The notes below the pieces were generated by a model. That model saw only the letters and a program-made list of their open reading frames with translations, ran no database searches and was not told the origin of the DNA. Source: Tillus elongatus (Eukaryota; Arthropoda; Insecta; Coleoptera; Cleridae). From it: a DNA stretch of 64,000 nt. Positions 1 to 18,283 of the stretch are shown here, in pieces; position 1 is the first letter of the stretch; every line of letters begins with the position of its first letter. The stretch spans positions 94,224,476 to 94,288,475 of the forward strand of contig OZ023262.1 of assembly GCA_964006375.1 (NCBI GenBank). Reading direction: 5' to 3'. A program made the translations under genes and the position numbers.

Positions 1-95
1 CGTGGCCCAGTGACGTCACATGACTTGCGCCAGACAGTCACATGCAAACATTCCAAAGTGTCTGACCTATTACTTCTATTATTCTGGGGATATTG

Positions 96-180
96 AAAAA
101 AACCATTTGGAGCAGGTGAGTTTCGAACCCGGGACATTCAGATGAGGAACGACTACCTTAACCGTCGCGGCTAATCAAGC
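96..180 (-). ncRNA. tRNA-like Pol III unit in left arm (mirror copy)
   Basis: Inverted copy of the right-arm unit. The B-box lies at about 118-129 on the minus strand and the seven-A run (T7 on the transcript strand) at 96-102. It also reads outward. Confidence 0.45.
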
Positions 181-574
181 ACTTGTTAATTTATTGTTTC
201 AGATTTGTATATATACGACTTTTAATTAAAACAAACCATACATGTAACATATTTAAATATTTTATTATTATTAGACAATTGAATGATTCACAAAATAAGA
301 ATTAATATGTTTTAATATTATATAAATGTGAGCTGGAAGATAAAGCCCTTCTTACATTTAATGAGGGAATATCAAATCTGTAAAAATAACACACAGAGGT
401 CGTTGGCAAACAAAAGAAGGAAGTTCAGAAACAAAATAGACAACAGGTTCAAATAGGAAACCAAACTTAAATATCGTAGAGACAATAGAGGTCGCTGGCA
501 AAACAAAGAAGGAAGCTCAGAAACAAAATGGACAACAGGTTTAACTCTTAAAAATAGGAACTTTTTTAGCCTTA

Positions 575-732
575 TGTGTGGGCGCGGCAAGTAGTTGATT
601 TTATTTTGAAAGAGATACAGGTTCGATTCCTGATATATGCTCCTTGATATGGTAGCGTCAAACAAATACAAAGAGGTACTGAATAACTAAACAGTAAGCT
701 TAGAAACAATGGTTGGTTACAGGTTCAATTCC
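575..732 (+). other. Two further B-box-like motifs in left arm
   Basis: GGTTCGATTCC at 620-630 and GGTTCAATTCC at 722-732 both match the Pol III B-box core and both follow the trinucleotide ACA. The mirror copies in the right arm are at 17531-17541 and 17429-17439 on the minus strand. A-boxes are unclear, so these may be degenerate tRNA-like sequences. Confidence 0.35.
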
Positions 733-810
733 TTTCTTAAGCTAACCCCAAGTGTTTAGTGTCATGTTACTCGTCTAAGTAAGCAGAATTAAAAATGGCG
801 ACTAAAATAA

Positions 811-1560
811 GATAAAAAACTTAAAACCCTTATCGCGGAAGATCCGTGAGATGTACGATAGAACCAATACATGCACGGTGTTAAGGAGGCCAAATCAAAG
901 TGGAATATACAATAAAATGGCCACTTCCGGTCTAAACTTTAAATCCTTATATCTTTTGAACGGAAAGTGATAGAAAGGAACCGACTTCAAAAATATATCG
1001 TTTCATAACAAGCTCTACAAGAAAATGAGATAAAAAACTTTAAATCCTTATCGCGGAAGATCGGTGAGATGTACGATAGAACCAATACATGCACGGTGTT
1101 AAGGAGGCCAAACCAAATTGGAATATACAATAAAATGGCCACTTCCGGTCTAAACTTTAAATCGTTATATCTTTTGAACGGAAAGTGATAGAAAGGAACC
1201 GACTTCAAAAATGTATGTTTCGTAACAAGGTCTACAAGAAACTAAGATAAAAAACTTCAAATCCTTATCGCGGAAGATCGGTGAGATGTACGATAGAACC
1301 AATACATGCACGGTGTTAAGGAGGCCAAATCAAATTGGAATATACAATAAAATGGCCACTTCCGGTCTAAACTTTAAATCGTTATATCTTTTGAATGGAA
1401 AATGATAGAAAGGAACCGACTTCAAAAATGTATGTTTCGTAACAAGGTCTACAAGAAAATGAGATAAAAAACTTCAAATCCTTATCGCGGAAGATCGGCG
1501 AGATGTACGATAGAACCAATACATACACGCTGTTCAGCAAAGCAATAAAATCAATAAAAA
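811..1560. repeat. 217-bp tandem repeat, about 3.4 copies, left arm
   Basis: Units begin at 811, 1029, 1246 and 1463 (period 217-218), each starting GATAAAAAACTT and containing CGCGGAAGATC, with an ACTTCCGGTCTAAAC stretch in the complete units. The last unit is partial. The array gives spurious open frames on both strands. Confidence 0.9.
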
Positions 1561-2012
1561 TGTTACTTCCGGTAGACACTTCCGGTATAGCTATTCTTAG
1601 AGCTACATACATGTGTGACACATCAAAATAATCGTCTTGTTGAACAGAAGAAATATAATATTTAAGTAAGTCAGAACAAGCTGTATTAACACCTAAAACC
1701 AACACACACTCTCTTGTAGTAGGTATAGATGGTTCCTTCTGGAGCCACCACCGCCACTCCGCCACCGGTGGTGGCGGTGGTGGTGGTGGAACTGACCAGA
1801 CCCGACGACCCCCGAGCTAACCCGAGCACAAGGTGGTGGACCCGACGACCTCCGAGCTAACCCGAACACAAGGTGGCGGAGTCACTGACTAGACCCGAAT
1901 ATCTCCACCACCTGACTTCGTATTTAACCCGAACAAGTAGCGAACTAACCTGAGATGACGTAATCAAAAGCCAACTAACCTGTATTAGGTAAACGAGGAA
2001 CCGCCATTTAAA

Positions 2013-4521: not shown

Positions 4522-4681
4522 CTATCTACATCCTCCGGAAAAACACATTAGGACCAGATGTTTCCAACGACTAATTAACCGCTATCTACATCCTCCAGAA
4601 ACTCTATAGGATGTTTCCAACGACTAATTAACCACTATCTACATCCTTCAGAAACTCTGTAGGATGTAGATAGTGGTTAAC
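4522..4681. repeat. Short tandem and inverted repeat with perfect 20-bp hairpin
   Basis: CTATCTACATCC recurs at about 4523, 4583 and 4635. The third copy is followed by its exact inverse, so that 4628-4647 pairs with 4661-4680 (20 of 20 bases) around a 13-nt loop. The hairpin lies between the two convergent gene blocks. Confidence 0.85.
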
Positions 4682-4844
4682 GGTTAATTTCGCAAAAACT
4701 TGCGTCAGCTATGAGGTTTCATACACAGATCGTGAAAAAGTAACGCGGACTACTTTTTTACGATCTAAAATATTTATCCAACTCGCCAATACCTGTAAAA
4801 TCCAATTCGTCTTCATAAGGCAGCTCATTTAGGTTAGGCTTATT

Positions 4845-4905
4845 TATTTACTTATTTATTTACTTATCTATATAGTTATTTATTTACTTCTTTATGTACT
4901 TATCT
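4845..4905. repeat. TTTA-rich simple repeat
   Basis: TTATTTACTTATTTATTTAC-type simple sequence. No coding potential. Confidence 0.8.
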
Positions 4906-5195
4906 AGTCAAACGTTCCTAATATTAGTTTCTATACTCTTTCAAGATTTCCTTGTGAAAATATTTAGTTTAAAGACGTGTTATAATGTCTAAAGTGATTG
5001 TAGAAATTGAAAATCAATTGTAATACTTCTTATATTTAAGCGACTTGTCATAAATTTGTTAATAACGAAAACTTTACGTTTAGCTTTGTGTTGAGTAGGT
5101 TGTTGAAATAAAAAAACATATATTTTACAATGTTTATTTTAATAAAAGCATATATTTTACAACGTTTGTTTTATTATAAAGTATTGTAATACAAA

Positions 5196-6089
5196 TTATT
5201 TTATATCTTTGCTAGTTATCCATGAGTTATGAGATTTATCAAAACCAAGCCATTTCACATACGACTTGGCGCCTTTCTTTCTGATCACTCTTTCAACTAA
5301 ATAATAATCAGGGGTTGCAGTCTTTTGTAGCTCCTCTTCATAAAATCCACCACTGATTGGTTTGCCTTGCATGTCTTCTATTAAATAGGTGGTTGGATTA
5401 GTGCAGTGAACTTTAGTGATTTTAAACAGCTCCGTTGACCAACGCGGTGTATAACCTTTCTCAAATAATGTTTTAGCTTTACTTAGACGTACAACATCAC
5501 CCACTTTAAATTTATTTTTGTTAAACACTTTCAGATTCGAGTAAACTTGTTTCAGAATAGCTTCTTCATTTTTCTTGTTAACATCTTGAGGTTTTACACC
5601 AGTTGTTCGATGAACAGTAGCGTTGTAAGTAGCAGTGACATCAGGTAGTGTATTAACCCACTTGTAGGAGCCATTCAAGTTGAAATTTTTATATATCTTC
5701 TCTTTTAAGGTACGTATGACTCTTTCCACTATTGCAGCCTTCTTCACGCTATAAGTGCTGTAGTGATTAATGTTGTATTTTTTCATTATGGCGTTAAATT
5801 TAGCGTTATAGAATTCTAACCCAAGATCAGACTGGATGTTAGAGGGTGCTGTACTAGTAGATAAAATATCAGCCATAGCTTTAGTCACCTCTCCAGCAGT
5901 TTTAGATTTAAGAGGGCGAGTCCACACATACTTTGAAAAACAATTAATAACCACTAAAATATACTTGTAACCAGAGTTGTCTTTGTAGTAGTCTGTAAAT
6001 TCTGCTAAATCAATCTGCCACAAATCATTTAAACCTTTGATTATTGTACGTCTACGTTTAAAATTGATTCTTGCCGGTTTATATCTCAT
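5196..6089 (-). CDS. Retroviral-type DDE integrase with C-terminal chromodomain
   Basis: Integrase of the Maverick/Polinton type, which joins element ends to host DNA and makes a 6-bp target duplication. Counting from the ATG at 6089, catalytic acidic residues are visible in WQIDLAEF (D27), IQSDLGLEF (D88) and IVERVIRTLK (E122). The last 40 residues (YYLVERVIRKK...YVKWLG...SWI) look like a chromodomain. The open frame runs to 6122, but only from a TTG; the first ATG is at 6089, leaving no N-terminal zinc-binding region. A 19-codon frame (6138 to 6079) begins in an ATGA overlap with the upstream fibre-like gene and runs over the integrase start, which suggests stop-start coupling or loss of the N-terminal part. 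A signal for polyadenylation (AATAAA on this strand) is at 5170-5175. Confidence 0.92.
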   Translation of the reverse strand: MRYKPARINFKRRRTIIKGLNDLWQIDLAEFTDYYKDNSGYKYILVVINCFSKYVWTRPLKSKTAGEVTKAMADILSTSTAPSNIQSDLGLEFYNAKFNAIMKKYNINHYSTYSVKKAAIVERVIRTLKEKIYKNFNLNGSYKWVNTLPDVTATYNATVHRTTGVKPQDVNKKNEEAILKQVYSNLKVFNKNKFKVGDVVRLSKAKTLFEKGYTPRWSTELFKITKVHCTNPTTYLIEDMQGKPISGGFYEEELQKTATPDYYLVERVIRKKGAKSYVKWLGFDKSHNSWITSKDIK

Positions 6090-6134
6090 CAATAATTTGT
6101 TTTTTGGTATCAGATGGCTCAACTGTTTTACGTC

Positions 6135-6584
6135 TCATGGTGATGTTGGATTTAAAAGTATCCACTTATCATGTAAATCTTTTAGTTTGCTGTCTATCTC
6201 ACCTAGCTTCTTTTTCAACTTGTTATTCTTTAACACATCAATATCTTTTAAAACTTGAGCAGCTATCGTCTTGTCTAAATTTTTCAATTTGTTTTCAAAC
6301 TCGCTTTTAAGAGCAGCTAGTTCTGATTTATGCACAGCTTCAAGGGTTATAGCGACAAGACTCTGTGATACTTCATCTTTATTCTTCTTATACTCATCTG
6401 CCCACACATCGACAAATTTTCTATTCACACCATCAGCAGGCTCGATAGGATCACCTACGTTACATAATTTATGGTTTTGCACATCAAAATCACCACTTGT
6501 AGTTTTCGGAAATGTTTCTCTGTGCACAATTTTGTTTAAGAAGCTGGGAGTCTTTGCAGAACGTCCGAACTTATCGATAGACAT
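6135..6584 (-). CDS. Fibre-like protein 2 (149 aa), short paralogue
   Basis: Begins MSIDKFGRS and shares its first 65 or so residues with the upstream gene (FPKTTSGDFDVQNHKLCNVGD...VNRKFVDVW). In tail-fibre and adenovirus-like fibre proteins, a stretch of this kind (NVGDP.EP.DGV...VD) precedes a coiled-coil shaft, and here the remainder is charged and heptad-like, with no head domain visible. The likely role is a trimeric spike anchored to the capsid vertex; this is inferred from pattern only. It lies 13 nt after fibre-like gene 1, and its stop overlaps a downstream ATG (ATGA, 6135-6138). Confidence 0.7.
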   Translation of the reverse strand: MSIDKFGRSAKTPSFLNKIVHRETFPKTTSGDFDVQNHKLCNVGDPIEPADGVNRKFVDVWADEYKKNKDEVSQSLVAITLEAVHKSELAALKSEFENKLKNLDKTIAAQVLKDIDVLKNNKLKKKLGEIDSKLKDLHDKWILLNPTSP

Positions 6585-6597
6585 TTTTACACTGAAC

Positions 6598-7461
6598 TTA
6601 TTTTATTTCATTCCAACTAAACTCCATTTTTGATATCCGTTTATCCACCATAACCCAAACTGCTGCCACTGCTTCCTGAACTAGATTTCTATTTATCCCT
6701 TCGATAGCACCATCGATATACTCCTTAGTCACAAACGTTTTTTTAAGTTTATTTTCAATCGTAATCACTGCTTGATTTAAATCGTCTTTAGTAGCAAACG
6801 TATTTTTCAAGTCAGCTTCAAGTTTTGAAACTGCTAGATCTATATAATCTTTTTGAAGTTTAGATATAGCGGTATCAGCCATAGCAGTAAACGTTTTCTG
6901 AGGAGGAAACACTGTTTGATGTATGTACTCCTTGATATCCTCTTTAAGACTAATTAATGTTTCATCAATGCTAGTTTTAAGCGGAAACGAGCTGTAGGCT
7001 TCATGTTTAAGATCCATATAATTTTTCATTAATTGCTCTTCAAGCTTTTGTAGTGATTGATCAACACCAGTCTTAAGTGGAAATGAGTTATAGACTTCAC
7101 GTTTAAAATCATCATAGTTTTTAAATTTATGTTCAAAGTCTTTTTTTAAAGCTTCCAACTCCGGTTTATGTACAGCGTCAAGCAGTATAGCAATTTGAAG
7201 TGCTACAGCATCTTTGCTCACCTTATAATCAGCTTTAGTTTTCTGATAGTCAACTTTAGTTTTCTGATAGTCCTCTATCCATACATCAACAATTTTTTTA
7301 CTTACACCATCTGTAGGTTCAACAGGGTCACCCACGTTACACAACTTATGGTTTTGCACATCAAAATCACCACTTGTAGTTTTCGGAAATGTTTCTCTGT
7401 GAATAATTCTGTTTAGATGTTTTAAATTCTTTGCAGAACGTCCGAATTTATCGATCGGCAT
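6598..7461 (-). CDS. Fibre-like protein 1 (287 aa), long paralogue
   Basis: The start is taken at MPIDKFGRS (7461) because it aligns with the paralogue; the open frame extends 14 codons further, through a TATA-like TATATAA (7493-7499). After the conserved N-terminal NVGDP block come repeats (DYQKTKVDYQKTKADYK, then two units around YNSFPLKTGVD and YSSFPLKTSID) and long heptad-like helices to the end, as expected of a fibrous trimer. No receptor-binding head is recognised. Together with the shorter copy it forms a tandem gene duplication in which the shaft length differs. Confidence 0.7.
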   Translation of the reverse strand: MPIDKFGRSAKNLKHLNRIIHRETFPKTTSGDFDVQNHKLCNVGDPVEPTDGVSKKIVDVWIEDYQKTKVDYQKTKADYKVSKDAVALQIAILLDAVHKPELEALKKDFEHKFKNYDDFKREVYNSFPLKTGVDQSLQKLEEQLMKNYMDLKHEAYSSFPLKTSIDETLISLKEDIKEYIHQTVFPPQKTFTAMADTAISKLQKDYIDLAVSKLEADLKNTFATKDDLNQAVITIENKLKKTFVTKEYIDGAIEGINRNLVQEAVAAVWVMVDKRISKMEFSWNEIK

Positions 7462-7492
7462 TTTGAAAATGGTGAAAAACACACAAATCTGT

Positions 7493-7499
7493 TTATATA
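7493..7499 (-). promoter_or_regulatory. TATA box for fibre-like gene 1
   Basis: TTATATAA on the minus strand, 32 nt before the ATG at 7461. It overlaps the stop region of the upstream gene. Confidence 0.4.
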
Positions 7500-8615
7500 A
7501 CACCCACTTCCTTCAGTTCTTCAATAATAGACTGAATTTCGTTGTTGTGTGCGTTATTACCAGCTGCTTGAGAAGCTACTAACAGTCTAAGTCTATCAAC
7601 CAACTCGTTTATATCATCCCAGTATACATACTCTTTCTGTTTTTTTTGTATGTAGCATGTATGGCATACCACGGCCTAAAGTTACCGAGGAAGATCGCGC
7701 TCTAGCACCTTCTTGTTTTTCTAAAATTGGTTTTATTACATGTTGATATTTGGTAGAGGTATTTCGTAGAACGTCTTCTTTAGGATTGTTCTCTTTTCTG
7801 TGAAGACTAGTAGTTGCCATTATGTCTGCGTAGTCACGTAAAGCTTCCCGATTGTTCAAAGCACTCATACCAGGTTTTCTCAAAAATATCAATTCCAACA
7901 GATGATTAGTACCGTAATATCTTCTGTCACCAACCACAATTTGAAAGGTTTCTCTATTTTTAAAATCTACGTTAGTAATAACAAATTTAATAGGTTTGTT
8001 TCCAAGCATCCAAGTGTTGGTAGCTTTATCATAAGTAACACCATATGTTTGATCACAGGAATGATTATCTGTAAAATATTTATCAACATAATATCTAACA
8101 ACTATTGGATAGGAACTTAACATTCGTTCGTACACTGCCTTTGGTGTATTTGCAGCAGCATCTAATTTTCTATAAGCTTTAGTCGCCCATAATTCAGGTT
8201 CTGGTGCCTCCGCCTCCAATTCAAACGTTTCATCATCACTAAGGAATGGAATTTCCTCCTTTGCTGCTGTTGGTTTGACATCAACTTCAGTTTTAGTCGG
8301 TTTCTGTTCAGTTGTTTGAGTAGTAGCCAATAATGTAGCAGGTTTCTGTTGCGTTGTTTGAGTAGTAGCTAATGATGTGGTGGTTTTAGTCGGTTGGTGT
8401 TGAACAGTAGCCAATGCTGTGTTTTTCGATATATCACTCAAAGGTTTTAAGATGGGTTTATATAAACGTTGTAATGTTTCATCTGTCTCTGTTTTGCCAA
8501 GCTTCAAAGCTAAATATTTCTTTCGAATTATCTTTGATAGATCAGCTATTTTACGTTGTATATTTGGTGGTGCTACTATTTTACCATGACGAACAGCTTT
8601 AGATTTTTTCGACAT
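7493..8615 (-). pseudogene. Conserved Maverick protein of unknown function, frameshifted near its C-terminus
   Basis: The first 333 codons run from ATG 8615 to a stop at 7614. The N-terminus is basic (RKIADLSKIIRKKYLALKLG), then a Thr/Gln-rich linker carries a repeated ATTQTT.QKP motif (residues 83-106), then a folded part ends near TLGRGMPYM. The homologue in element 2 has a conserved tail (YVYW.DINELVDRL...) that here lies in the +1 frame from about 7637 to 7493. The break falls in an eight-base homopolymer (T run 7640-7647 on the plus strand). One extra base, by mutation or sequencing error, explains it. I recall similar proteins as a DUF (possibly DUF8207) in many arthropod predictions, but cannot verify that. 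Probably a capsid-associated protein. Confidence 0.75.
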
Positions 8616-8656
8616 GTTTACTCTATGTCGAACAACTTAATACTAACGTTTTTCAG

Positions 8657-9352
8657 TCAAGTGAGATATATAAAGTGATCAAACCCTTTGCGGTATCTTC
8701 CTTGTGTTAAATCAGAATCTTTAACGACAACCACCATATCATGTTTGTTTTGCCAGCATTCACCACAAAGGAGCTTGAACTTTTCAAAACTCATATCGGT
8801 AGTTACATGATCATCATACACATGTTTAAGATTAGTTTCATCTTGTTTAAATAAAACTATAATGTTAGCATTGTCACGCACCAATTGCTTCGGAACTTTG
8901 CTATATGTCTGACATAAGTAGAAACTATCAATATTTTTATGTCTACCCATACAAAAATACGATTTTATTTTATCTTGCCTATCACAGGCTACATCATCAA
9001 ATATAAAAATTGAATTACTCTTTGCATCTGCAGGATCTAATATCTCTTCGTTTTCACTATATGGATAGTATCCAACACCTTTTGTAGCATCCAACACCTC
9101 CTTTAACATACTGTATTTAGGTTGATATAAAGACTTTGAGTATACGTATACGTTTTGAAATTTTAAACCGTTGGGTTCAAACAACAAACTTAACATAACA
9201 TTTGTTTTACCACATCCACTTGGACCACATATCAAACATCTAACTGTGTTTGGTAAAAGAAGTCCATGTCTTTGCTGTTTAGGTGATGGAATGGTAACAT
9301 CATCTATGTTTGTGACTGGTAGGGTAGCTTTTGCGTGTTTAACAATACGCAT
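8657..9352 (-). CDS. Genome-packaging ATPase (FtsK/A32-like)
   Basis: 231 residues. Walker A is GPSGCGKT (residues 43-50) and Walker B is the hydrophobic strand IFIFDD (about 115-120); the later KQLVRDN and VLFKQDETN blocks complete a FtsK/HerA-type core. In Polintons and related viruses this enzyme drives DNA into the preformed capsid. Roughly three quarters of positions match the element 2 copy, making it the best conserved protein of the two elements. It is divergent with the PLA2/pX gene across only 80 bp and lies 41 bp before the conserved unknown gene. Confidence 0.93.
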   Translation of the reverse strand: MRIVKHAKATLPVTNIDDVTIPSPKQQRHGLLLPNTVRCLICGPSGCGKTNVMLSLLFEPNGLKFQNVYVYSKSLYQPKYSMLKEVLDATKGVGYYPYSENEEILDPADAKSNSIFIFDDVACDRQDKIKSYFCMGRHKNIDSFYLCQTYSKVPKQLVRDNANIIVLFKQDETNLKHVYDDHVTTDMSFEKFKLLCGECWQNKHDMVVVVKDSDLTQGRYRKGFDHFIYLT

Positions 9353-9389
9353 CGTTAACTAAACTAAAACTTTTTACGAGTGCAACCAT

Positions 9390-9399
9390 CTATATAAAT
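9390..9399. promoter_or_regulatory. Shared bidirectional TATA element
   Basis: TATATAAATA is the only TATA-like sequence in the 80-bp divergent gap. It lies 33 nt from the plus-strand ATG (9433) and 37 nt from the minus-strand ATG (9352), and reads as a TATA sequence on both strands. Confidence 0.45.
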
Positions 9400-9432
9400 A
9401 CTCAGATTTATCATACCTCATTAGCAGTATAA

Positions 9433-10245
9433 ATGTTGGTGTGCCAAGGTGAAGGTCTTGTTAACACAGCCATCAACAAATTACCTGTTGAGCTGCATGT
9501 TCCTGGTTATCAGTTTTGTGGTCCAGGTACTAAACTTAAAGAACGTCTTGCTAGAGGTGATCAAGGTATCAATCCTTTAGATCGTGTTTGTCGAGATCAC
9601 GATATCGCATACTCTCAATCAAAACAGTTGAGTGATAGACATCGAGCTGACGAGGTGTTGGAGAACCGAGCGTGGGAGAGAGTAAAGTCGAAGGACGCAA
9701 GTTTTGGTGAAAAGTTAGCTGCTTGGGGTGTTACAAACACTATGAAAGTTAAAAGAAAGCTTGGTATGTGTTTAACCCTAAAGACAACCACCAAACGTAA
9801 ACGTAGCAGTAAAAAAGTAAAATGTGGCGGTAAAATACCATTTAAAAACATAATAAATTTAATGAAAGGTGCTATAGCTGTGGGTGCGGAAGTTCCATCT
9901 GTAAAAAATTTACTACATGTAGCGAGAAAAGTAATTAAAAATGCTGGTGGTCGTAAGAAAGTCAAGACACCCAGAGTTATTCCAGTACCGAAAAGTGGAG
10001 GTTTCCTTCCACTACTACCTTTAATTTTTAATGGTCTATCAGCGCTAGGCGCTCTAGGTGGTGGTGCTGCAGGCATTGCTAAAGCAGTTAACGATGCTAA
10101 ATCAGCCAAACAAAAATTGGAAGAAGCAAAACGTCATAACCAAACGATGGAGGCTATTGCTGTTGGTCAACGAGGTAGTGGCTTGTATATGAAGAAACAG
10201 CGAAGCGGTTTCGGTTTGTATTTACATAAACCAAAAAACGTGTAA
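9433..10245 (+). CDS. PLA2-domain / pX-like minor capsid protein
   Basis: The N-terminal part is a parvovirus-type phospholipase A2 domain: Ca-binding loop CGPGT (residues 29-33) and catalytic CRDHDIAY (53-60, with H56 and D57), expected to open endosomal membranes during entry. A basic stretch (KRKRSSKK, about 121-128) follows, then a Gly/Ala-rich hydrophobic segment (FLPLLPLIF...LGGGAAGIA, 191-215) and a helix, as in the adenovirus core pX-like proteins of adintoviruses. The frame ends at 10245 just after an A AAA AAC heptamer (10233-10239). The -1 frame beyond encodes the protease, so a longer PLA2-protease product is likely. The element 2 copy retains only residues equivalent to 104 onward. 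Confidence 0.88.
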   Translation: MLVCQGEGLVNTAINKLPVELHVPGYQFCGPGTKLKERLARGDQGINPLDRVCRDHDIAYSQSKQLSDRHRADEVLENRAWERVKSKDASFGEKLAAWGVTNTMKVKRKLGMCLTLKTTTKRKRSSKKVKCGGKIPFKNIINLMKGAIAVGAEVPSVKNLLHVARKVIKNAGGRKKVKTPRVIPVPKSGGFLPLLPLIFNGLSALGALGGGAAGIAKAVNDAKSAKQKLEEAKRHNQTMEAIAVGQRGSGLYMKKQRSGFGLYLHKPKNV

Positions 10246-10613
10246 AGTGTTTACCAGCAAGACCTCTAACAAATATAGATCTTGTGAAATTTGCTGGTAA
10301 AATGAAAATTCCATATTTTAGAGGTGTATACATGCGAGATACTTTACCATCGAATGGATCACGCAAGAATGAATCATTTATCATGAATTTGCAAACAAAC
10401 AAAGAGTCAGGTAGTCATTGGGTTGCAGTTAAGAAACGTGGTGACACAGCCGTGTACTTTGACTCATATGGAAACTTGAAGCCACCAAATGAACTGTTGT
10501 ATTATCTTAAAAACTGTACTATATTGTATAATCATGATGTATATCAAAAGTATAATACTTATAATTGTGGCCACTTATGTTTAAAATTTTTAAATAAAAG
10601 ACTTAAACAGTAG
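10230..10613 (+). CDS. Adenain-like cysteine protease, -1 frame of PLA2/pX gene
   Basis: Open in the -1 register from 10230; the first ATG is at 10302, inside the domain. Counted from that ATG, the adenovirus-type protease residues are visible as H39 (GSHWVAV), D54 (VYFDSYG), Q82 (VYQKY) and C89 (YNCGHLC). The region before the ATG (TNIDLVKFAGKM) also looks like part of the fold, so the natural protein probably starts in the PLA2/pX gene and is reached by frameshift. This enzyme would process capsid precursors during maturation. It ends 16 nt before the penton gene. In element 2 only the extreme C-terminus (NKRLKQ) is left. Confidence 0.85.
   Translation, partial: TKKRVKCLPARPLTNIDLVKFAGKMKIPYFRGVYMRDTLPSNGSRKNESFIMNLQTNKESGSHWVAVKKRGDTAVYFDSYGNLKPPNELLYYLKNCTILYNHDVYQKYNTYNCGHLCLKFLNKRLKQ
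10233..10301 (+). promoter_or_regulatory. Candidate -1 programmed ribosomal frameshift site
   Basis: A AAA AAC (10233-10239) sits exactly in the zero-frame register of the PLA2/pX gene (CCA AAA AAC), four nucleotides before its TAA. Ten nucleotides after the heptamer, TTTACCAGCA (10250-10259) pairs perfectly with TGCTGGTAAA (10292-10301), giving a 10-bp stem with a short inner AAGA/TCTT extension. A -1 shift enters the protease frame, open from 10230. Confidence 0.75.
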
Positions 10614-10629
10614 TATCTGTGTTTCAGTC

Positions 10630-11409
10630 ATGGCGCGTACGTTTGCTTTGAAGGGTTCTACGTCCTCGTTATCGATGGAAATATTTCCACCGTTAGTATT
10701 AAAACCGCACTTTGAGTATTCGCTCGCGCTTGCAAACTTTCATACATATAACACTATACCAAACATAGAACGTGGGTGTAATAAGTTTCATTATTTTTCT
10801 GCTGTGAGTGGTAGAAAGATTCGACAAGAAATAAGTATTCCTGATGGTTCATATGAAATCAGTGATATCGAGAAATACATTCAGAATGAGTTGTTACGAC
10901 GTTATATTAAAGATAAACATCTGGATCCTGCAGTAGAACACAACATCGATGTGGTAAAACTGTTTTCGCTAAAAGCCAACAACAACACTTTGAAATGTGA
11001 GATTACATGTCAGTATGATATAGACTTTTCTACCGATGCTTCAATAGCACCAATATTGGGCTTTTCTAAACAACGTCTTGCTACAGGTAAACTTTACGTT
11101 TCCAATTTACCCGTAGAAATTGTACGAGTAAAGACGATTCGTTTGGAATGCAACATAGTAGATGGTTCTTACCACGATGGAAAACCTACACATACAGTAT
11201 ATGAGTTTGCTCCTATGGTAGACCCTGGTTATGCGATTGATATAAAACCATATAGTAAGGTTTTTATGCCTCTTACCACACGTATCATTTCGCATATAAA
11301 TGTAAACATTATCGATCAGAATTCAGTACCTGTGAACTTTCAAGGTGAGGAGATCATTGTGATATTGGAGTTGAAAGAGACACCAACATATTATGCTGAT
11401 TATAAATAG
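10630..11409 (+). CDS. Penton-like minor capsid protein
   Basis: 259 residues, starting MARTFALKG. Length, position between protease and major capsid gene, and blocks such as ANFHTYNTIPNI, SYHDGKPTHTVYEFAPMVDPGY and VPVNFQGEE near the end fit the single-jelly-roll penton of adintoviruses and Polintons, which would form the capsid vertices. The homologue in element 2 (236 residues) is clearly alignable throughout, including the FQGEE end. The stop region overlaps the start of the next small frame (11393-11409). It is also the likely anchoring point of the fibre-like proteins, by inference. Confidence 0.85.
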   Translation: MARTFALKGSTSSLSMEIFPPLVLKPHFEYSLALANFHTYNTIPNIERGCNKFHYFSAVSGRKIRQEISIPDGSYEISDIEKYIQNELLRRYIKDKHLDPAVEHNIDVVKLFSLKANNNTLKCEITCQYDIDFSTDASIAPILGFSKQRLATGKLYVSNLPVEIVRVKTIRLECNIVDGSYHDGKPTHTVYEFAPMVDPGYAIDIKPYSKVFMPLTTRIISHINVNIIDQNSVPVNFQGEEIIVILELKETPTYYADYK

Positions 11410-11605
11410 TAGTAATCAAACCGCTCCAGCTTCAGTATCTTCGCTACCTGAGTCGAAAGCGGTTCTATCTTGGGAGAACATACAGTTTCTACAATCATTG
11501 GGTTACGATGTTAAGCAAACTACATATATTCGCAGACCCTGTGCACGACGAGTCAATCAGAGGGGAAGAAATACACACATACGCTCCTCAAACCAGATCG
11601 TTTGA
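11393..11605 (+). CDS. Small overlapping protein between penton and major capsid genes
   Basis: 70 codons, overlapping the end of the penton frame by 17 nt and the start of the capsid frame by 98 nt. The block ENIQFLQSLGYDV (about residues 28-40) is matched in element 2 by DNIEFLQSLGYHV in the same location and register relative to both neighbours, although the surrounding residues differ. That conservation supports a real short protein rather than a chance frame. Function is unknown; a capsid-associated peptide is plausible. The C-terminal part is read inside the capsid gene and is not conserved. Confidence 0.6.
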   Translation: MLIINSSNQTAPASVSSLPESKAVLSWENIQFLQSLGYDVKQTTYIRRPCARRVNQRGRNTHIRSSNQIV

Positions 11606-12713
11606 CCATAATGATACCTGTGAGTTTGCAATCAACCAACAAGATATTTTTTACGATTGGTCTTCATCTGTTCTACTGATAAATGGTAGTATTGAGACGA
11701 GTGGTACGATTGGAACTGTAGAAGTAACGTCTAATGCAGCAGCTCATTTGTTTTCCTCTATTGCGGTTGAAATGTGTAATCAGATTATTGAACATGTGAG
11801 AAATCCTGGTATAGTTACATCAATTAGAACACTTTTGGAAGCAAACAGTGATGAAGCAAGAGCTCTGATTCCAGCGGGATGGCATCCAACCGAAAACAAT
11901 GTGATGTTAAAAAATGAACGTTTTTGCTACTGCATACCTCTTAGCTACTTGTGTAATATTTTCAAAGACTATAAAAGAGTGCTTTTCAGTAAATTGCTTC
12001 TACGTCTCACTAGAGCTCAGAATGATAGAAATTGCTTTATTTTGATTGGTGCCGCAGATGCAGATAAGGCATTAAAGTTTAACATTGAGTATATGGCTCT
12101 GCAGGTGAAACATATCCACCCTAGTGAAGTTATACAGCAGCAATTATTAAAGTCGATTGCTCTAGATAAGAAAATCCTTATACCATATAGAAAATGGGAG
12201 ATGTATGAATTACCAAATCTAAATAATTCAACGAAAGACTTGTGGTCTATTAAGACATCCTCAAACACTGAACGACCTAGATTTGTTATTGTGATATTCC
12301 AAACAGATCGATACAGTAACGTTAGAAAAGACATCAACGAGTTTGATCATGTGGGTATTCGAGATATAAGACTTCACTTAAATTCGAAACAAATCCCCAC
12401 AGAGGGTATGAACCTGAACTTTAACCAAGCAAATTACGTCGAGGCATATAGAAACATGATTGAATTTCAACGTTCGTATGTTGGCAGAGAACCACAGCCT
12501 ACCTTGGATTACAAGTCTTTCCTAAAATATCCCATGTTTGTATTTGATTGCTCCAAGTATAGCGACTCTATAAAACCTTCTACTGTGGATATCAAATTGG
12601 AAATGGAAAGTACTACCAACTTTCCCACTCACACGAAATGTTTTTGTGTAATTATACATGATTGCGTCATCGAGTATGCCCCACTCTCCAACATCGTACG
12701 CTATATAATGTAG
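11508..12713 (+). CDS. Major capsid protein (hexon-like)
   Basis: 401 residues from ATG 11508. Element 2 has a 401-residue homologue with the same start region (M.SKL.IF..PV.D) and end (EYAPL..IVR.IM), about half identical by eye. Conserved blocks include FAINQQD, FRFTRSRND-type RLTRAQND, PYRKWEMYELP and RPRFVIVIFQTDR. Position after penton, length and pairing with ATPase and protease match the double-jelly-roll capsid protein of adintoviruses; the fold assignment comes from family knowledge, not from sequence signature alone. The start overlaps the small upstream protein. Confidence 0.85.
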   Translation: MLSKLHIFADPVHDESIRGEEIHTYAPQTRSFDHNDTCEFAINQQDIFYDWSSSVLLINGSIETSGTIGTVEVTSNAAAHLFSSIAVEMCNQIIEHVRNPGIVTSIRTLLEANSDEARALIPAGWHPTENNVMLKNERFCYCIPLSYLCNIFKDYKRVLFSKLLLRLTRAQNDRNCFILIGAADADKALKFNIEYMALQVKHIHPSEVIQQQLLKSIALDKKILIPYRKWEMYELPNLNNSTKDLWSIKTSSNTERPRFVIVIFQTDRYSNVRKDINEFDHVGIRDIRLHLNSKQIPTEGMNLNFNQANYVEAYRNMIEFQRSYVGREPQPTLDYKSFLKYPMFVFDCSKYSDSIKPSTVDIKLEMESTTNFPTHTKCFCVIIHDCVIEYAPLSNIVRYIM

Positions 12714-12741
12714 CTGTAAGGATGCTGCAATCACTTTCACG

Positions 12742-13230
12742 ATGAGGTTCGTGGTCGTTGATACTCAGGGTTTTTGTGTGCCTGAATTTACACCTAAAGA
12801 GTTTGTGATTTATAATGGTTTCCAAACAGTGCATTGTGTTTTTAAACCGCATACACCATTACGTTTACTGTCTGCAGACATAATCAAGCAAGTGAAGTTT
12901 CTACAAACACAACACCATTGCCTTGACTATAATTGTGGTGATATTAATTTAGAAGAATTACCAAACATAATAGCAAAACATATTATAGCCCAACGTGTTG
13001 ACAGAATTTATGTTAAAGGTGAAAACAAGCAAAGGTTTTTGTTACATTTACTATCAACCTGTGGTTATCAAGTGGATGTTATCAACCTGGAAACCAGTGA
13101 ACGTTGTCCAACGTTAGTGCCTGATACTCCTTTGTGTATGGATCATACTTTAGGATATAATAGAAAATGTATCTGTAGCATAAATAACTGTATATCATTA
13201 TTTACTTATATTGTAAGCTTAATGCCATAA
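12742..13230 (+). CDS. Unknown capsid-block protein (162 aa)
   Basis: Starts 28 nt after the capsid stop. MRFVVVDTQGF at the N-terminus looks like the first strand of an RNase H-like or exonuclease-like fold, and RIYVKGENKQRFLLHLL plus a Cys/His-rich end (CPTLV, PLCMDHTLGYN, KCICSINNC) could bind metal. I recall similar short proteins near capsid genes of arthropod Mavericks, but cannot name a family. The stop overlaps an AATAAA (13229-13234), which marks the end of the rightward block. It is absent from element 2. Confidence 0.6.
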   Translation: MRFVVVDTQGFCVPEFTPKEFVIYNGFQTVHCVFKPHTPLRLLSADIIKQVKFLQTQHHCLDYNCGDINLEELPNIIAKHIIAQRVDRIYVKGENKQRFLLHLLSTCGYQVDVINLETSERCPTLVPDTPLCMDHTLGYNRKCICSINNCISLFTYIVSLMP

Positions 13231-13234
13231 TAAA
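13229..13234 (+). terminator. Polyadenylation signal AATAAA at end of capsid block
   Basis: AATAAA overlaps the TAA stop of the 162-residue frame; a facing signal (TTTATT on plus, 13261-13266) serves the leftward block. Confidence 0.6.
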
Positions 13235-13271
13235 ACAAACGTTGTAAAATATATCTGTTTTTTATTTTAAA

Positions 13272-13769
13272 CTACTTTAAAATACATTTATTAATATTAA
13301 TTTCCAACCACATTAGTCTTTCCAACATCCATCCGCTATCACCTTCAGCAAACTCTAAAGCTTTTGTGTAAATCTCCTCAGTAAATTCTTGATATATATT
13401 TTCAAAGTTAGTTGCCACTGTGATATTTTTATTTTTAGTATTAAATGACTTCATTTCTTTTTTATTTCGACTTTGAAGCACATACAAACCAAACAATTCT
13501 AGATTCATTTTAACTGTATCGTGTTTGGCTAAAGCAGCCTCCATCAAATGAAACAATTTATGCTTCACACTTTCCATGGCAAGTTGTATATCACTACCAT
13601 CCATACTAATACGATAGGTAGCCATTCTGTTTTTAAAAGCTTGAGTTAACATATAAACTTGTTCAACTTCCCACGGTTCACACACTTTAGATTTGTGAAT
13701 TTCACTGCGTAAATGTCCAGAGAAAGCACTCTTTTTCACTTGTAACGAGCACGATTCACAGTATCTCAT
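13272..13769 (-). CDS. C2H2-type zinc-finger protein, possible remnant of the DNA polymerase gene N-terminus
   Basis: 165 residues. The first 30 hold a zinc-finger pattern C4-X2-C7-X11-H19-X5-H25 (CESC...HLRSEIHK). A helical part follows (AFKNRMATYRISM...LMEAALAKHDTVKMNLELFGLY) and an end SGWMLERLMWLEININK. From memory, protein-primed polymerase genes of arthropod Mavericks open with this kind of zinc-finger and helical region and continue past the NIN.-type end into the exonuclease and polymerase domains. Here the frame stops exactly there and nothing polymerase-like follows. It could be a truncated remnant, or a co-opted stand-alone DNA-binding protein. It is intact as read. Confidence 0.6.
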   Translation of the reverse strand: MRYCESCSLQVKKSAFSGHLRSEIHKSKVCEPWEVEQVYMLTQAFKNRMATYRISMDGSDIQLAMESVKHKLFHLMEAALAKHDTVKMNLELFGLYVLQSRNKKEMKSFNTKNKNITVATNFENIYQEFTEEIYTKALEFAEGDSGWMLERLMWLEININKCILK

Positions 13770-13830
13770 CTTAACTATAGGTGCTTAACTAATGAGTAAA
13801 ACACAGACATCTTCAGTTTATATATTTTTA

Positions 13831-14259
13831 TTAACAAATATGTTTACGATAAATATCTTTAAGTACAGTGTAATATTTAAAACCAAAATACATGAGTATA
13901 AATATGGCAAGACACATAAGAAAACCAGTTGATATAAACATAGAAATATAATTTGAAGTGAACAGGTAAGAATCATTTAACACAAGAGTTCTCCAGTCAG
14001 CTGTCTCACCTCGGGTGCCATGATCAAACAAAAACATAAGTTTATAATGTACTATATCAGTCTTAATATTGGACATGTTGTATGTTGAAACTTCAATCGC
14101 TTCATCGTTGTGCAGATATGTTCTTGGTAGTCCAGACCATTTGGTGCAGTCATCGAAACAGATTCGCACTTCTTTCACATTTGGTGGTTTGTAGACGTAA
14201 AACACATTTTGACACAATGCTGTCAGGATGACGAAGCTTGCTTTAAGAGGTGGTGCCAT
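13831..14259 (-). CDS. Single-pass membrane protein of unknown function (142 aa)
   Basis: A hydrophobic N-terminus (ASFVILTALC) could be a signal peptide, and a strongly hydrophobic segment at about residues 105-130 (MFISTGFLMCLAIFILMYFGF) is a clear transmembrane helix followed by a short basic tail. Between them are about 80 polar residues with two cysteines (ICFDDC). The layout resembles a type I membrane protein. The ATG lies inside the 298-residue gene (17-nt overlap, 14243-14259). A membrane protein is not part of the standard Maverick core. Polyadenylation signal on this strand at 13827-13832. Confidence 0.6.
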   Translation of the reverse strand: MAPPLKASFVILTALCQNVFYVYKPPNVKEVRICFDDCTKWSGLPRTYLHNDEAIEVSTYNMSNIKTDIVHYKLMFLFDHGTRGETADWRTLVLNDSYLFTSNYISMFISTGFLMCLAIFILMYFGFKYYTVLKDIYRKHIC

Positions 14260-15139
14260 TGATGAGGTTATTGATGTCGGTTAGCACTTGTTCTTGAGCG
14301 TAATGCAAACACTCTGACATGTAATACTTGAATGTTGAAGACATGTTGTTGAGTAGGGTTTTTATCACTCGGATGGTTTGCGCAGCACTCACATCTGAAT
14401 TACCCAGCTCTGTTAATGTTTGAACGATGTCGCGAAGAAAACAGTCATATATCCAAGCAAACTGTGTTTCTCTTACATACTCAAATCTTTCCTTAATGAT
14501 TTCCTCATGCTCCACCAGCTTTTCTACAGTGTCTTCATTTAGATACATAACCATATGTGTAAAACAATTATTAACACACAAAACTTTTTCACTTAGCATA
14601 GTTGTAGGAGAGATTCGACAGTAGCTCGTCTGAGTTACAGCATGAGTTTGTTCATTATCTTTAAACCACTTTGCAGATAATGCACGTATGTTATCCATAA
14701 AATCGTAAAACTGCCACTCTTCCAATGCTAGATATTGATTTTCTTCATCTAGAGCCAAAGGGTTAACAAATTTCACAAGTATTGTGAACTCATTTCTTGC
14801 ACTAACACCAGTCACTAATTTTACAGATCTTCTGATGTTAAAAGTTGTTTCCATCAGCATCCTAGTATCATCTTGATATTTGTTAAACAATAACTTTTTC
14901 CTATGATGTTCACGGAAATCAGGACCATCGTTTTCGTCACACATTGTTTCAGCACAACAATTCCAAGCAGCTTTCATAGCTAGAAATTTTAAACTAAACT
15001 TGCTATCGTAAACTCTGATGTTAAATAGGTTTTCCCTCTCCACTTTAATTGGTTGTATTCTTCTGGTTGGTTGACTGTTAAACTTTAAAAATCTTTTGCA
15101 ATCACTAAACACCTTATAATATTTCGCACAACATTCCAT
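14243..15139 (-). CDS. Unknown protein (298 aa)
   Basis: Full-length frame from MECCAKYYK at 15139, overlapping the membrane-protein start by 17 nt. It contains many cysteines and long amphipathic helices (VEKLVEHEEIIKERFEYV; LNNMSSTFKYYMSECLHYAQEQVL). No domain is recognised, and there is no hydrophobic segment long enough for a membrane helix. The overlap with the membrane protein suggests joint expression and perhaps a joint role. No counterpart in element 2. Confidence 0.6.
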   Translation of the reverse strand: MECCAKYYKVFSDCKRFLKFNSQPTRRIQPIKVERENLFNIRVYDSKFSLKFLAMKAAWNCCAETMCDENDGPDFREHHRKKLLFNKYQDDTRMLMETTFNIRRSVKLVTGVSARNEFTILVKFVNPLALDEENQYLALEEWQFYDFMDNIRALSAKWFKDNEQTHAVTQTSYCRISPTTMLSEKVLCVNNCFTHMVMYLNEDTVEKLVEHEEIIKERFEYVRETQFAWIYDCFLRDIVQTLTELGNSDVSAAQTIRVIKTLLNNMSSTFKYYMSECLHYAQEQVLTDINNLINGTTS

Positions 15140-15168
15140 GTTCTTTATATCACAGCTTTCTGTGTAAA

Positions 15169-15495
15169 CTAAATATTTCTAATGGTTTCTACATCATAAT
15201 AACTTTTATATTGATCTTGAGCTTCTCCAGGTAAATATTTGAAAAATGGTTTGCTTAAATGCGCTCCTGGACGGTATCGAATGAGCGCTAGAGCGAAGAA
15301 CTGTGTGGAGCAGTATCCAGCTAAATATATATCACATAATTCAACTATATGACCACTCTCATAGTCTTCACCTTCAGAGTCGCGTTCATCTGTAAAAGCC
15401 TCGCTTTGTATTTCCAACACCAACTGTTTTCATTCACACACTTCATCGCCTATTCTATTTTTACGTCCATACCACCGCTCGTAGTTATACGCCAT
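15169..15495 (-). pseudogene. Small acidic Maverick protein interrupted by in-frame TGA
   Basis: An ATG at 15495 (MAYNYERWYGR...) runs for 21 codons to a TGA at 15430-15432. The same frame stays open for another 86 codons (QLVLEIQ...GHIVELCDIYLAGYCSTQFF...) to 15169 with no internal ATG. A TATA sequence (TATAAAAG on this strand, 15531-15538) lies 36 nt before the ATG, so the first part is probably the true start. The simplest reading is a nonsense mutation in a gene of about 108 residues; stop-codon readthrough is an alternative, though the base after TGA is A. I recall similar proteins in other arthropod Mavericks. Confidence 0.6.
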
Positions 15496-15538: not shown

Positions 15539-16429
15539 CAAAAAAATTCTAGAGTTTTATCTATTTCATACGACTTTAAGGTCATTCAACGGAAATAAAA
15601 CCACAAACAGGAAATATGAACTACCTACAAGGTTATTTCAACAGCTGCAAGAAAACTATGTTGGCTAACAAGGTTAATTTCGGGAAATGCTAAATATAGT
15701 CATAGTTGGAAGCGATATCGCGGCTACCACTAGATGTATTGTTGCCAGCTCTGCTTTCAACAGATTCTTTAAATCAAACCGATTCCAATACGACTTAAGA
15801 ATATACATTTTTTATTGTACACATGTACATATGTTAAATTTGGATTCTGCTTACCTAGACGAGTGATATGACACCAAACACGTAGGACTTTAATGCATAA
15901 ATAACAAATTGCTTGTACGCATGCGCTAGCCGCCATGTTTAAATGGCGGTTCCTCGTTTACCTAATACAGGTTAGTTGGCTTTTGATTACGTCATCTCAG
16001 GTTAGTTCGCTACTTGTTCGGGTTAAATACGAAGTCAGGTGGTGGAGATATTCGGGTCTAGTCAGTGACTCCGCCACCTTGTGTTCGGGTTAGCTCGGAG
16101 GTCGTCGGGTCCACCACCTTGTGCTCGGGTTAGCTCGGGGGTCGTCGGGTCTGGTCAGTTCCACCACCACCACCGCCGCCACCGGTGGCGGAGTGGCGGT
16201 GGTGGCTCCAGAAAGAACCATCTATACCTACTACAAGAGGGTGTGTGTTGTTTTTAGGTGTTAATACAGCTTGTTCTAACTTACTTAAATATTATATTTC
16301 TTCTGTTCAACAAGACGATTATTTTGATGTGTCACACATGTATGTAGCTCTAAGAACGGCTATACCGGAAGTGTCTACCGGAAGTAACATTTTTATTGAT
16401 TTTATTGGTTTGCTGAACAGCGTGTATGT

Positions 16430-17355
16430 ATTGGTTCTATCGTACGTCTCGCCGATCTTCCGCGATAAGGGTTTGAAGTTTTTTATCTCAGTTTCTTGTA
16501 GACCTTGTTACGAAACATTTGAAGTCGGTTCCTTTCTATCACTTTCCATTCAAAAGATATAACGATTTAAAGTTTAGACCGGAAGTGGTCATTTTATTGT
16601 ATATTCCACTTTGATTTGACCTCCTTATCACCGTGCATGTGTTGGTTCTATCGTACATCTCACCGATCTTCCGCGATAAGGATTTGAAGTTTTTTATCTC
16701 ATTTTCTTGTAGACCTTGTTACGAAACGATATATTTTTAAAGTCGGTTCCTTTCTATCACTTTCCGTTCAAAAGATATAACGATTTAAAGTTTAGACCGG
16801 AAGTGGCCATTTTATTGTATATTCCAATTTGATTTGGCCTCCTTAACACCGTGCATGTATTGGTTCTATCGTACATCTCACCGATCTTCCGCGATAAGGA
16901 TTTGAAGTTTTTTATCTCAGTTTCTTGTAGAGCTTGTTATGAAACGATATATTTTTAAAGTCGGTTCCTTTCTATCACTTTCCGTAAAGATATAACGATT
17001 TAAAGTTTAGACCGGAAGTGGCCATTTTATTGTATATTCCAATTTGATTTGGCCTCCTTAACACCGTGCATGTATTGGTTCTATCGTACATCTCACCGAT
17101 GTTCCGCGATAAGGGTTTAAAGTTTTTTATCTCATTTTCTTGTAGAGCTTGTTACGAAACAATATATTTTTAAAGTCAGTTCATTTCTATCACTTTCCGT
17201 TCAAAAAATATAACGATTTAAAGTTTAGACCGGAAGTGGCCATTTTATTGTATATTCCACTTTGATTTGGCCTCCTTAACACCGTGCATGTATTGGTTCT
17301 ATCGTACATCTCACGGATCTTCCGCGATAAGGGTTTTAAGTTTTTTATCTTATTT
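16430..17355. repeat. 217-bp tandem repeat, about 4.4 copies, right arm
   Basis: Same unit as at 811-1560 in inverted orientation. The GATCTTCCGCGATAAGG core recurs about every 215 bp at roughly 16458, 16668, 16882, 17098 (as GATGTTCC) and 17313. This arm has one unit more than the left arm. Confidence 0.9.
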
Positions 17356-17980
17356 TAGTCGCCATTTTTTAATTCTGCTTACTTAGACGAGTAACATGAC
17401 ACTAAACACGTGGGGTTAGCTTAAGAAAGGAATTGAACCTGTGACCAACCATTGTTTCTAAGCTTACTGTTTAGTTATTCAGTACCTCTTTGTATTTGTT
17501 TGACGCTACCATATCAAGGAGCATATATCAGGAATCGAACCTGTATCTCTTTCAAAATAAAATCAACTACTTGCCGCGCCCACACATAAGGCTAAAAAAG
17601 TTCCTATTTTTAAGAGTTGAACCTGTTGTCCATTTTGTTTCTGAGCTTCCTTCTTTGTTTTGCCAGCGACCTCTATTGTCTCTACGATATTTAAGTTTGG
17701 TTTCCTATTTGAACCTGTTGTCTATTTTGTTTCTGAACTTCCTTCTTTTGTTTGCCAACGACCTCTGTGTGTTATTTTTACAGATTTGATATTCCCTCAT
17801 TAAATGTAAGAAGGGCTTTATCTTCCAGCTCACATTTATATAATATTAAAACATATTAATTCTTATTTTGTGAATCATTCAATTGTCTAATAATAATAAA
17901 ATATTTAAATATGTTACATGTATGGTTTGTTTTAATTAAAAGTCGTATATATACAAATCTGAAACAATAAATTAACAAGT

Positions 17981-18065
17981 GCTTGATTAGCCGCGACGGT
18001 TAAGGTAGTCGTTCCTCATCTGAATGTCCCGGGTTCGAAACTCACCTGCTCCAAATGGTTTTTTT
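17981..18065 (+). ncRNA. tRNA-like Pol III unit in right arm
   Basis: An A-box-like TTAGCCGCGACGGTTAAGG (from 17988), a B-box GGTTCGAAACTC (18032-18043) and a run of seven T (18059-18065) occur in the order and spacing of an internal RNA polymerase III promoter with terminator. I could not fold a convincing full cloverleaf, so tRNA-derived or tRNA-like is safer than a functional tRNA. It reads outward, towards the element tip. Confidence 0.45.
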
Positions 18066-18283
18066 CAATATCCCCAGAATAATAGAAGTAATAGGTCAGA
18101 CACTTTGGAATGTTTGCATGTGACTGTCTGGCGCAAGTCATGTGACGTCACTGGGCCACGCCCACAAGGGGTGGGGCTCTGCCTACAAGGGGGGAGGGCT
18201 CCGCCCACTAGGGGTGGAGTGGCGGTGGGGGGCTCCGCCCCCACTTCCTGTCTAGCCCAAGTGTCCCATTACCTACTTAAATG

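What the first reader, a model, noticed from the sequence alone, without database searches (positions are those of the whole stretch)
10233..10301. Retrovirus-style -1 frameshift signal fusing a PLA2/pX capsid protein to its protease
Seen: A AAA AAC in exact zero-frame register, stop 4 nt later, perfect 10-bp stem beginning 10 nt after the heptamer, and the -1 frame open from 10230 through an adenain-like protease whose only ATG lies inside the domain. Known: this heptamer plus downstream structure is the gag-pro mechanism. Inference: this virus-like DNA transposon makes limiting protease as a fusion with a minor capsid protein. I do not know of this arrangement being described for Mavericks or adintoviruses.
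Basis: partly seen in the sequence, partly recalled or inferred. Interest (0 to 1): 0.9.

Follow-up and report, generated by a model that had tools for sequence, protein, structure and literature searches.

The report
Ribosomal frameshift joins capsid protein, protease
A virus-like jumping element in an animal genome appears to make its capsid-maturing protease by having ribosomes slip back one base at the end of a capsid gene, the trick retroviruses use, and the slip signal looks conserved in many relatives, although nobody has yet measured it.

Summary
Heptamer A AAA AAC (10233-10239) lies in zero-frame register at the end of a PLA2/pX minor-capsid ORF, one codon before its stop; the -1 frame runs into an adenain-type protease whose first ATG (10302) lies behind a helix of the fold. 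It is not decay: 40 of 40 scored young copies keep heptamer and register, with no ATG upstream in the protease frame. Relatives raise it above chance: 118 of 120 listed pX homologues end in Lys-Asn plus 0-2 residues, as a heptamer beside the stop would give; 8 of 11 old divergent copies in the same genome keep CCAAAAAAC; and one remote virus contig (L001) has the same heptamer, -1 overlap and no upstream ATG. Limits: the stem is only moderately supported; 89 of 120 listed protease homologues have a predicted start at or before the domain; and a second family in this genome has its own ATG at the junction, mostly not in the -1 frame. So frameshifting is probably real here, but not the only way in relatives. 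Nothing was measured. A 2024 preprint predicted a Hexon-Adenain frameshift in adintoviruses; my searches showed no pX-adenain report.

The parts
9433..10245 (+). pX / PLA2 minor-capsid ORF (270 aa), zero frame, stop TAA 10243-10245
   Evidence: Pfam Phospholip_A2_4 E 6e-11; 2328 homologues, 120 listed
10233..10239 (+). slippery heptamer A AAA AAC in zero-frame register (Lys-Asn codons)
   Evidence: 40 of 40 scored young copies; 8 of 11 old divergent copies; KN terminus in 118 of 120 listed pX homologues
10243..10245 (+). zero-frame stop TAA, one codon after the heptamer
   Evidence: TAA, TAG or TGA in old copies
10250..10261 (+). 5' arm of candidate stimulatory stem
10290..10301 (+). 3' arm of candidate stimulatory stem
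10230..10613 (+). -1 frame ORF: adenain-type cysteine protease
   Evidence: AF2 pLDDT 90.4; top PDB matches human adenovirus 2 and 8 proteinases
10302..10304 (+). first in-frame ATG of the protease frame, behind predicted helix 15-24
   Evidence: none upstream in 40 of 40 copies
10054..10068 (+). pX residues 208-212 LGGGA, fits the adenain-like cleavage pattern (M/I/L)xGG-x (pattern recalled)
   Evidence: pattern present in 118 of 120 listed pX homologues; 114 occurrences at the same place relative to the RHN motif
8657..9358 (-). A32-type packaging ATPase ORF
   Evidence: Pox_A32 E 3e-9
10594..11409 (+). penton-like ORF (name by gene order and recall, no Pfam match)
11406..12713 (+). double jelly-roll major capsid (hexon-like) ORF
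   Evidence: E 4e-60
5196..6134 (-). rve integrase ORF
   Evidence: E 4e-10
1..2012 (.). left terminal inverted repeat, as far as it lies in the window
   Evidence: 795 nt at 100% and 581 nt at 98% complementary to stretches of the right arm
15938..18160 (.). right terminal inverted repeat, as far as matched

Best explanation
Programmed -1 ribosomal frameshifting. Ribosomes translating pX mostly stop at 10243. A minority slip back one base while the two tRNAs sit on AAA AAC, helped perhaps by the downstream stem, and continue in the -1 frame to make a pX-protease fusion. The fusion rides into the assembling capsid through its pX part in low number, and the adenain domain then cleaves capsid precursors, probably pX itself at LGGG/A. 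Shown: anatomy, register, conservation and the predicted fold of the protease. Inferred: that slipping happens, its efficiency, packaging as a fusion, and self-cleavage.
For: Register and chance. Scored young copies: heptamer 40/40, protease frame open 40/40, pX open 39/40, no upstream ATG 40/40. Shared variants show constraint in pX (9 nonsynonymous, 17 synonymous, P 1e-4) and weakly in the protease frame (2:4, P 0.053; shared versus singletons Fisher P 0.009). Old divergent copies: CCAAAAAAC kept in 8 of 11 while the following codon (GAA, ATG or none) and the stop (TAA, TAG, TGA) differ; in an alignment of the window and 10 old copies each heptamer column is the same in 10 or 11 of 11, the next codon's columns in 8, 6 and 6. 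In 6 of those 8 the -1 register to the protease domain is intact. pX homologues: 118 of 120 listed end KN plus 0-2 residues, although the distance from a GLYL-like motif to KN varies 6-16. Remote contig L001: A AAA AAC at 4947-4953, zero-frame stop 4963, protease in -1 frame, first ATG inside the domain. Helix 15-24 precedes the first Met at high pLDDT. The two best protease hits, P0003 and P0004, also start inside the domain.
Against: No frameshifting, transcript or peptide was observed. The stem competes with another fold in a longer stretch, its 10-nt spacer is long (recalled), and its arms lie in protein-coding sequence. 89 of 120 listed proteases have a predicted start at or before the domain, 16 at residues 11-24, 15 inside the domain. 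Family 2 (17 copies) has an ATG at the junction; measured against the pX tail it is in the -1 frame in 5 copies, +1 in 10, the same frame in 2, and one copy (L094) reads straight from tail into protease. Of 11 old window-like copies L080 (CCTTAAAAC), L093 (one A more, which makes tail and protease continuous) and L099 (junction deleted) lack the site, and in L076 and L097 later indels break the register. No in-frame pX-protease fusion is among the 120 listed pX hits (longest 316 aa). Relatives' DNA outside this genome was seen only in L001.
Confidence: 0.8

Rival explanations
1. Termination-reinitiation or internal initiation: ribosomes finishing pX start again at a start codon beside the stop, so protease is made as a separate protein and the heptamer is incidental.
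For: 89 of 120 listed protease homologues have a predicted start at or before the domain; family 2 has an ATG at the junction; one old window-like copy, L078, has TGATG.
Against: The window family has no ATG before 10302 in 40 of 40 scored copies and L001 has none before the domain. KN is kept in 118 of 120 listed pX termini, which separate initiation does not explain. Starting at 10302 would lose helix 15-24.
Confidence: 0.1
2. Transcriptional slippage: RNA polymerase adds or drops an A in the A-run, giving mRNAs in which pX and protease are in one frame.
For: Family 2 has T/A runs of variable length at the junction between otherwise very similar copies; L001 has 11 As.
Against: The window family has only six As, fixed in 40 of 40 young copies and 8 of 11 old ones and followed by C there; the Asn after Lys in 118 of 120 listed homologues fits a heptamer, not a bare homopolymer. 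That slippage favours longer runs is recalled knowledge.
Confidence: 0.05
3. Lys-Asn is conserved as a protein motif (C-terminal recognition or cleavage) and the heptamer is only its coding.
For: KN is seen in homologues at protein level only; their codons were not seen outside this genome.
Against: The number of residues after KN varies 0-2, unlike a C-terminal motif. In the window plus 10 old copies the third bases within the heptamer are the same in 10 or 11 of 11, while neighbouring third bases vary more. L001, whose pX-like protein found no relative but itself, also has the heptamer there.
Confidence: 0.03
4. Decayed element: the frame break is a pseudogene mutation.
For: The genome holds many damaged copies.
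Against: Same register in 40 of 40 near-identical scored copies and in 6 old diverged copies, TIR stretches 98-100% matched, and shared variants under constraint in pX.
Confidence: 0.02

Closest known systems
Retroviral gag-pro -1 frameshifting (A AAA AAC class, e.g. MMTV; recalled)
   Same: Same heptamer class, stop just downstream, stem after it, structural protein fused to the maturation protease.
   Different: dsDNA Polinton-like element, cysteine adenain instead of aspartic protease, partner is a PLA2/pX minor capsid protein.
Hexon-Adenain (Hexain) and Penton slippery sites suggested for adintoviruses (PMC11071296, section 16 read)
   Same: Suggested -1 frameshift attaching adenain to a capsid protein in the same virus group.
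   Different: Partner there is Hexon; here pX. There a prediction stated as hypothetical; here register, copies and relatives were examined.
Sf Maverick 1 and 2 (PMC5803895, part 1 of section 11 and passages read)
   Same: PLA2-bearing CAP and adenain-like PRO are listed as separate ORFs of the element.
   Different: No frameshifting of CAP-PRO in what I read.
Human adenovirus 2 proteinase with pVI C-terminal cofactor (1nln, 1avp; PMC4246237 passages)
   Same: Closest solved fold; protease present at few copies per virion and tied to a minor capsid protein tail.
   Different: In the reviewed scheme protease and pVI are separate molecules and pVIc is cut out and bound later; the word frameshift has 0 hits in that review.

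Membership tests
Canonical programmed -1 frameshift site | X XXY YYZ heptamer in zero-frame register | tested here: met
Canonical programmed -1 frameshift site | -1 frame open through the site into a long ORF, zero-frame stop near | tested here: met
Canonical programmed -1 frameshift site | site conserved in relatives | tested here: met
   exceptions L080, L093, L099 and family 2
Canonical programmed -1 frameshift site | downstream stimulatory RNA structure | tested here: inconclusive
   stem, z -2.56 but displaced in a longer fold; 11 or 12 of 12 pairs in 9 of 10 old copies with a junction, 5' arm lost in L074; one copy with compensating changes, itself damaged; no Rfam match
Canonical programmed -1 frameshift site | measured frameshifting | not testable with these tools
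   needs a reporter or proteomics
Maverick/Polinton (adintovirus-like) element | rve integrase, A32 ATPase, DJR capsid, adenain protease | tested here: met
Maverick/Polinton (adintovirus-like) element | terminal inverted repeats | tested here: met
   outer ends not seen
Maverick/Polinton (adintovirus-like) element | protein-primed DNA polymerase B | tested here: not met
   longest ORF touching 1-18160 is 435 aa and is the capsid; no PolB match in the ORFs given to Pfam (smaller ORFs not scanned). So I call it Polinton-related, not a full Polinton.
Retroviral gag-pro | aspartic protease and reverse transcriptase downstream | tested here: not met
   protease is adenain-type; no RT match in the element ORFs given to Pfam
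Adintovirus Hexain | adenain fused to Hexon | tested here: not met
   protease overlaps pX, not the DJR ORF

The most novel reading that the evidence does not exclude
A gag-pro-like -1 frameshift attaching adenain to the pX minor capsid protein is an old and general device of animal Polintons/adintoviruses, reaching polinton-like viruses such as L001, so that these dsDNA viruses package their maturation protease in fixed low number as a fusion to a capsid protein; proteases with their own ATG are later or parallel additions.
Probability: 0.45. Interest if true: 0.85.

Novelty: new variant of a known kind. Interest (0 to 1): 0.75.

Why it matters
[quoted passage not shown] A conserved site between a minor capsid protein and its protease would show the retroviral dosage solution arising in an unrelated virus kind. 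It would say how protease enters Polinton particles, and give a simple test of whether these elements still make virions. It also gives a practical annotation rule: a pX ending in Lys-Asn just before the stop may mark a hidden pX-protease product that gene callers split.

Tried and rejected
Scans that gave no relatives: viral contigs with P0002 and with pX alignment A2, genome contigs twice, plasmids with pX and phages with the protease. Alignments A1 and A3 each found the same IMG/VR contig (L001/L002). A heptamer-plus-motif pattern scan gave one contig (L003) with phage-like ORFs, a chance match. The L001 pX-like protein found only itself. Rfam found nothing. Decay, plain protein-motif conservation and transcriptional slippage were considered and ranked low (see rivals).

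A second, internally deleted Maverick in the window has lost its protease, so it could not serve as comparison.

P0082, a protease homologue, begins with what looks like a pX tail in the same frame.

For these reasons the odds of the novel reading went from 0.50 to 0.45.

Full report
What is in the window. A Polinton-related element lies between inverted repeats 1-2012 and 15938-18160; the two longest matched stretches are 795 nt at 100% and 581 nt at 98%, so it looks young. Its outer ends were not seen. It carries an rve integrase, an A32 ATPase, a PLA2/pX protein, an adenain-like protease and a double jelly-roll capsid protein. No ORF long enough for a DNA polymerase B is present.

The junction. 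pX ends CCA AAA AAC GTG TAA at 10231-10245. The protease is in the -1 frame, open 10230-10613. Its first ATG is residue 25. The AlphaFold model (pLDDT 90.4) has helix 15-24 before that Met, with mean pLDDT 94 for residues 11-20. The best PDB matches are human adenovirus 2 and 8 proteinases (1nln E 9.5e-8). Starting at the first ATG would therefore lose part of the fold (inference).

Is it chance? Within pX, penton and hexon, 5 of 970 register positions carry a canonical heptamer and one carries A AAA AAC: this one. Three register positions lie in the 0/-1 overlap, giving a chance of 0.0017 for the exact heptamer and 0.016 for any canonical one. I do not rest the case on these odds but on conservation.

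Young copies. The genome search scored 40 of 3033 first-look candidates, all full length and 98-100% identical, the window's own copy included. Heptamer in 40 of 40, protease frame open in 40 of 40, pX open in 39 of 40, no ATG upstream in the protease frame in 40 of 40. Thirty of 143 pX copies scored with another query were fetched; they partly overlap the 40, are 96.6-99.1% identical, and all 30 have the same heptamer. Variants shared by copies, which probably arose while the element was active, are 9 nonsynonymous to 17 synonymous in pX and 2 to 4 in the protease frame, against about 2.5 to 1 expected; singletons are 27:13 and 15:1. The protease counts are small, and P there is 0.053.

Old copies. 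Patterns for the FRGV motif of the protease that do not mention the heptamer gave 28 loci: 5 and 23 (6 cut there, 17). Eleven are window-like and 17 a second family. Among the 11, CCAAAAAAC is exact in 8. L080 has CCTTAAAAC, L093 has one A more, L099 has lost the junction. After the heptamer the codon and the stop vary (GAA TAA, GAA TAG, ATG TGA, or TAA at once) with the stop within one codon. Read back from the FRGV motif, the -1 register is intact in 6 of the 8 (L074, L075, L077, L078, L085, L098); in L076 and L097 later indels break it, and in L093 the extra A makes tail and protease continuous. A Met ahead of the domain appears only in L078. These copies are damaged, so their losses are expected.

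The stem. It keeps 12 of 12 standard pairs in 4 of 10 old copies with a junction and 11 of 12 in 5; L074 has lost the 5' arm (the value printed for L074 is a misplaced arm). L076 has four changes that keep all pairs, one of them double-sided; random changes of that number do so in 0.6% of trials, a test chosen after seeing the data and on a copy whose register is broken. In a longer fold the stem is not in the lowest-energy structure.

Other species. Of 2328 pX homologues, the 120 listed were examined: 118 end in KN plus 0, 1 or 2 residues (28, 49, 41); the two others, P0216 and P0218, end in KKKFFR and KKKKFH. The distance from a GLYL-like motif to KN varies from 6 to 16 residues. A heptamer pinned beside the stop explains this; the DNA of these relatives was not available, so the codons are inferred. 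Named sources among the hits include Trypoxylus, Aromia and Molorchus (that these are beetles is recalled).

A remote relative. IMG/VR contig 3300046323_000841 (L001) encodes an adenain-like protease 42% identical in the best matched segment. It is in the -1 frame of an upstream ORF ending TKKKNPEF, with A AAA AAC at 4947-4953 inside a run of 11 As, and no ATG before the FRGV motif. The neighbouring ORF is an A32-type ATPase. The RNA after its heptamer folds only weakly better than shuffles (z -1.71). This is one contig.

Results against. Of the 120 protease homologues listed (of 500), 89 have a predicted start at or before the domain, 16 start at residues 11-24 and 15 inside the domain. The starts are gene-caller choices. 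Family 2 in this genome has an ATG at the end of a T/A run. The run totals 16 bases in 8 copies, 17 in 5, and 15, 13, 12 and 10 in one each. Against the pX tail, the protease ATG is in the -1 frame in 5 of 17 copies (all with 17; four of them with the tail ending KKKCQ and an A AAA AAA heptamer, one with a stop inside the run), in the +1 frame in 10 and in the same frame in 2; L094 reads straight through. The commonest type, 6 copies, reads KKN and then 12 more residues in pX, and a -1 slip there would not reach the protease. So this family does not follow the window's scheme, or its copies are damaged at the run.

Mechanism. I favour -1 frameshifting making a minor pX-protease product. By analogy with adenovirus, where estimates of 7 to 50 proteases per particle stand against over 2000 cleavages (PMC4246237 passages), a capped amount delivered inside the particle fits. 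pX has the pattern (M/I/L)xGGx in 118 of 120 listed homologues, 114 occurrences at the same spot. That this is the adenain cleavage pattern is recalled, and the region is glycine-rich, so this is only a lead. The pX tail might also serve as built-in cofactor, like the pVI tail of adenovirus; this is speculation.

Prior work. PMC11071296 (section 16 read) suggests slippery sites in adintovirus Penton and a Hexon-Adenain fusion. PMC5803895 (part 1 of section 11 and passages) lists CAP with PLA2 and PRO as separate ORFs. Passages of PMC8097293, PMC10120064, PMC12567637, PMC8363768, PMC10675110, PMC12721341 and PMC9683012 use 'frameshift' for mutations, assembly errors, search settings or other viruses; PMC8547959 has no such word in its main text. 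Searches for adintovirus; frameshift, Polinton, protease; programmed ribosomal frameshift, adenovirus, protease, Maverick; Polinton, adenovirus pX, frameshift; ribosomal frameshift with minor capsid terms; adintovirus, frameshift; ribosomal frameshifting, Polinton; eukaryotic DNA virus, slippery; and slippery, adenain showed no pX-adenain report in their listings. Of the 11 papers with adintovirus and frameshift, 8 were opened for passages; the others were seen as listings or, for one, not listed. The founding adintovirus paper (10.1093/ve/veaa055) is not held, so I cannot exclude that it mentions this.

Noticed in passing
window 25575-30507: A second Maverick-like element whose pX has lost its N-terminal part and whose protease is deleted. 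A 573-base piece of it matches 40 scored places (of 2318 candidates) at 99-100%, so a deletion derivative has multiplied.
   Followed up: partly
window 1-18160: The element has integrase and capsid genes but no ORF long enough for DNA polymerase B, yet its pX-protease stretch has 3033 first-look candidates in the genome, 40 of them scored.
   Followed up: no
L079, L081-L084, L086-L092, L094-L096, L100, L101: Second Maverick family with a T/A homopolymer of variable length exactly at the pX-protease junction between otherwise very similar copies; assembly error, replication slippage or a length switch.
   Followed up: partly
window 6135-7512: Two neighbouring reverse-strand ORFs are diverged duplicates (56-60% identical) without Pfam match.
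   Followed up: no
P0082 (protein hit): A protease homologue whose N-terminus looks like a pX tail in the same frame, a possible natural in-frame fusion.
   Followed up: no
P0177, P0180 (protein hits): pX homologues filed under Rickettsia endosymbionts of insects, probably host DNA in symbiont assemblies.
   Followed up: no
window 782-1537 and 16405-17503: Tandem repeats of about 217 bases inside both inverted repeats.
   Followed up: no
window 52870-55034 and 61671-62516: Endonuclease and reverse transcriptase ORFs, LINE-like.
   Followed up: no
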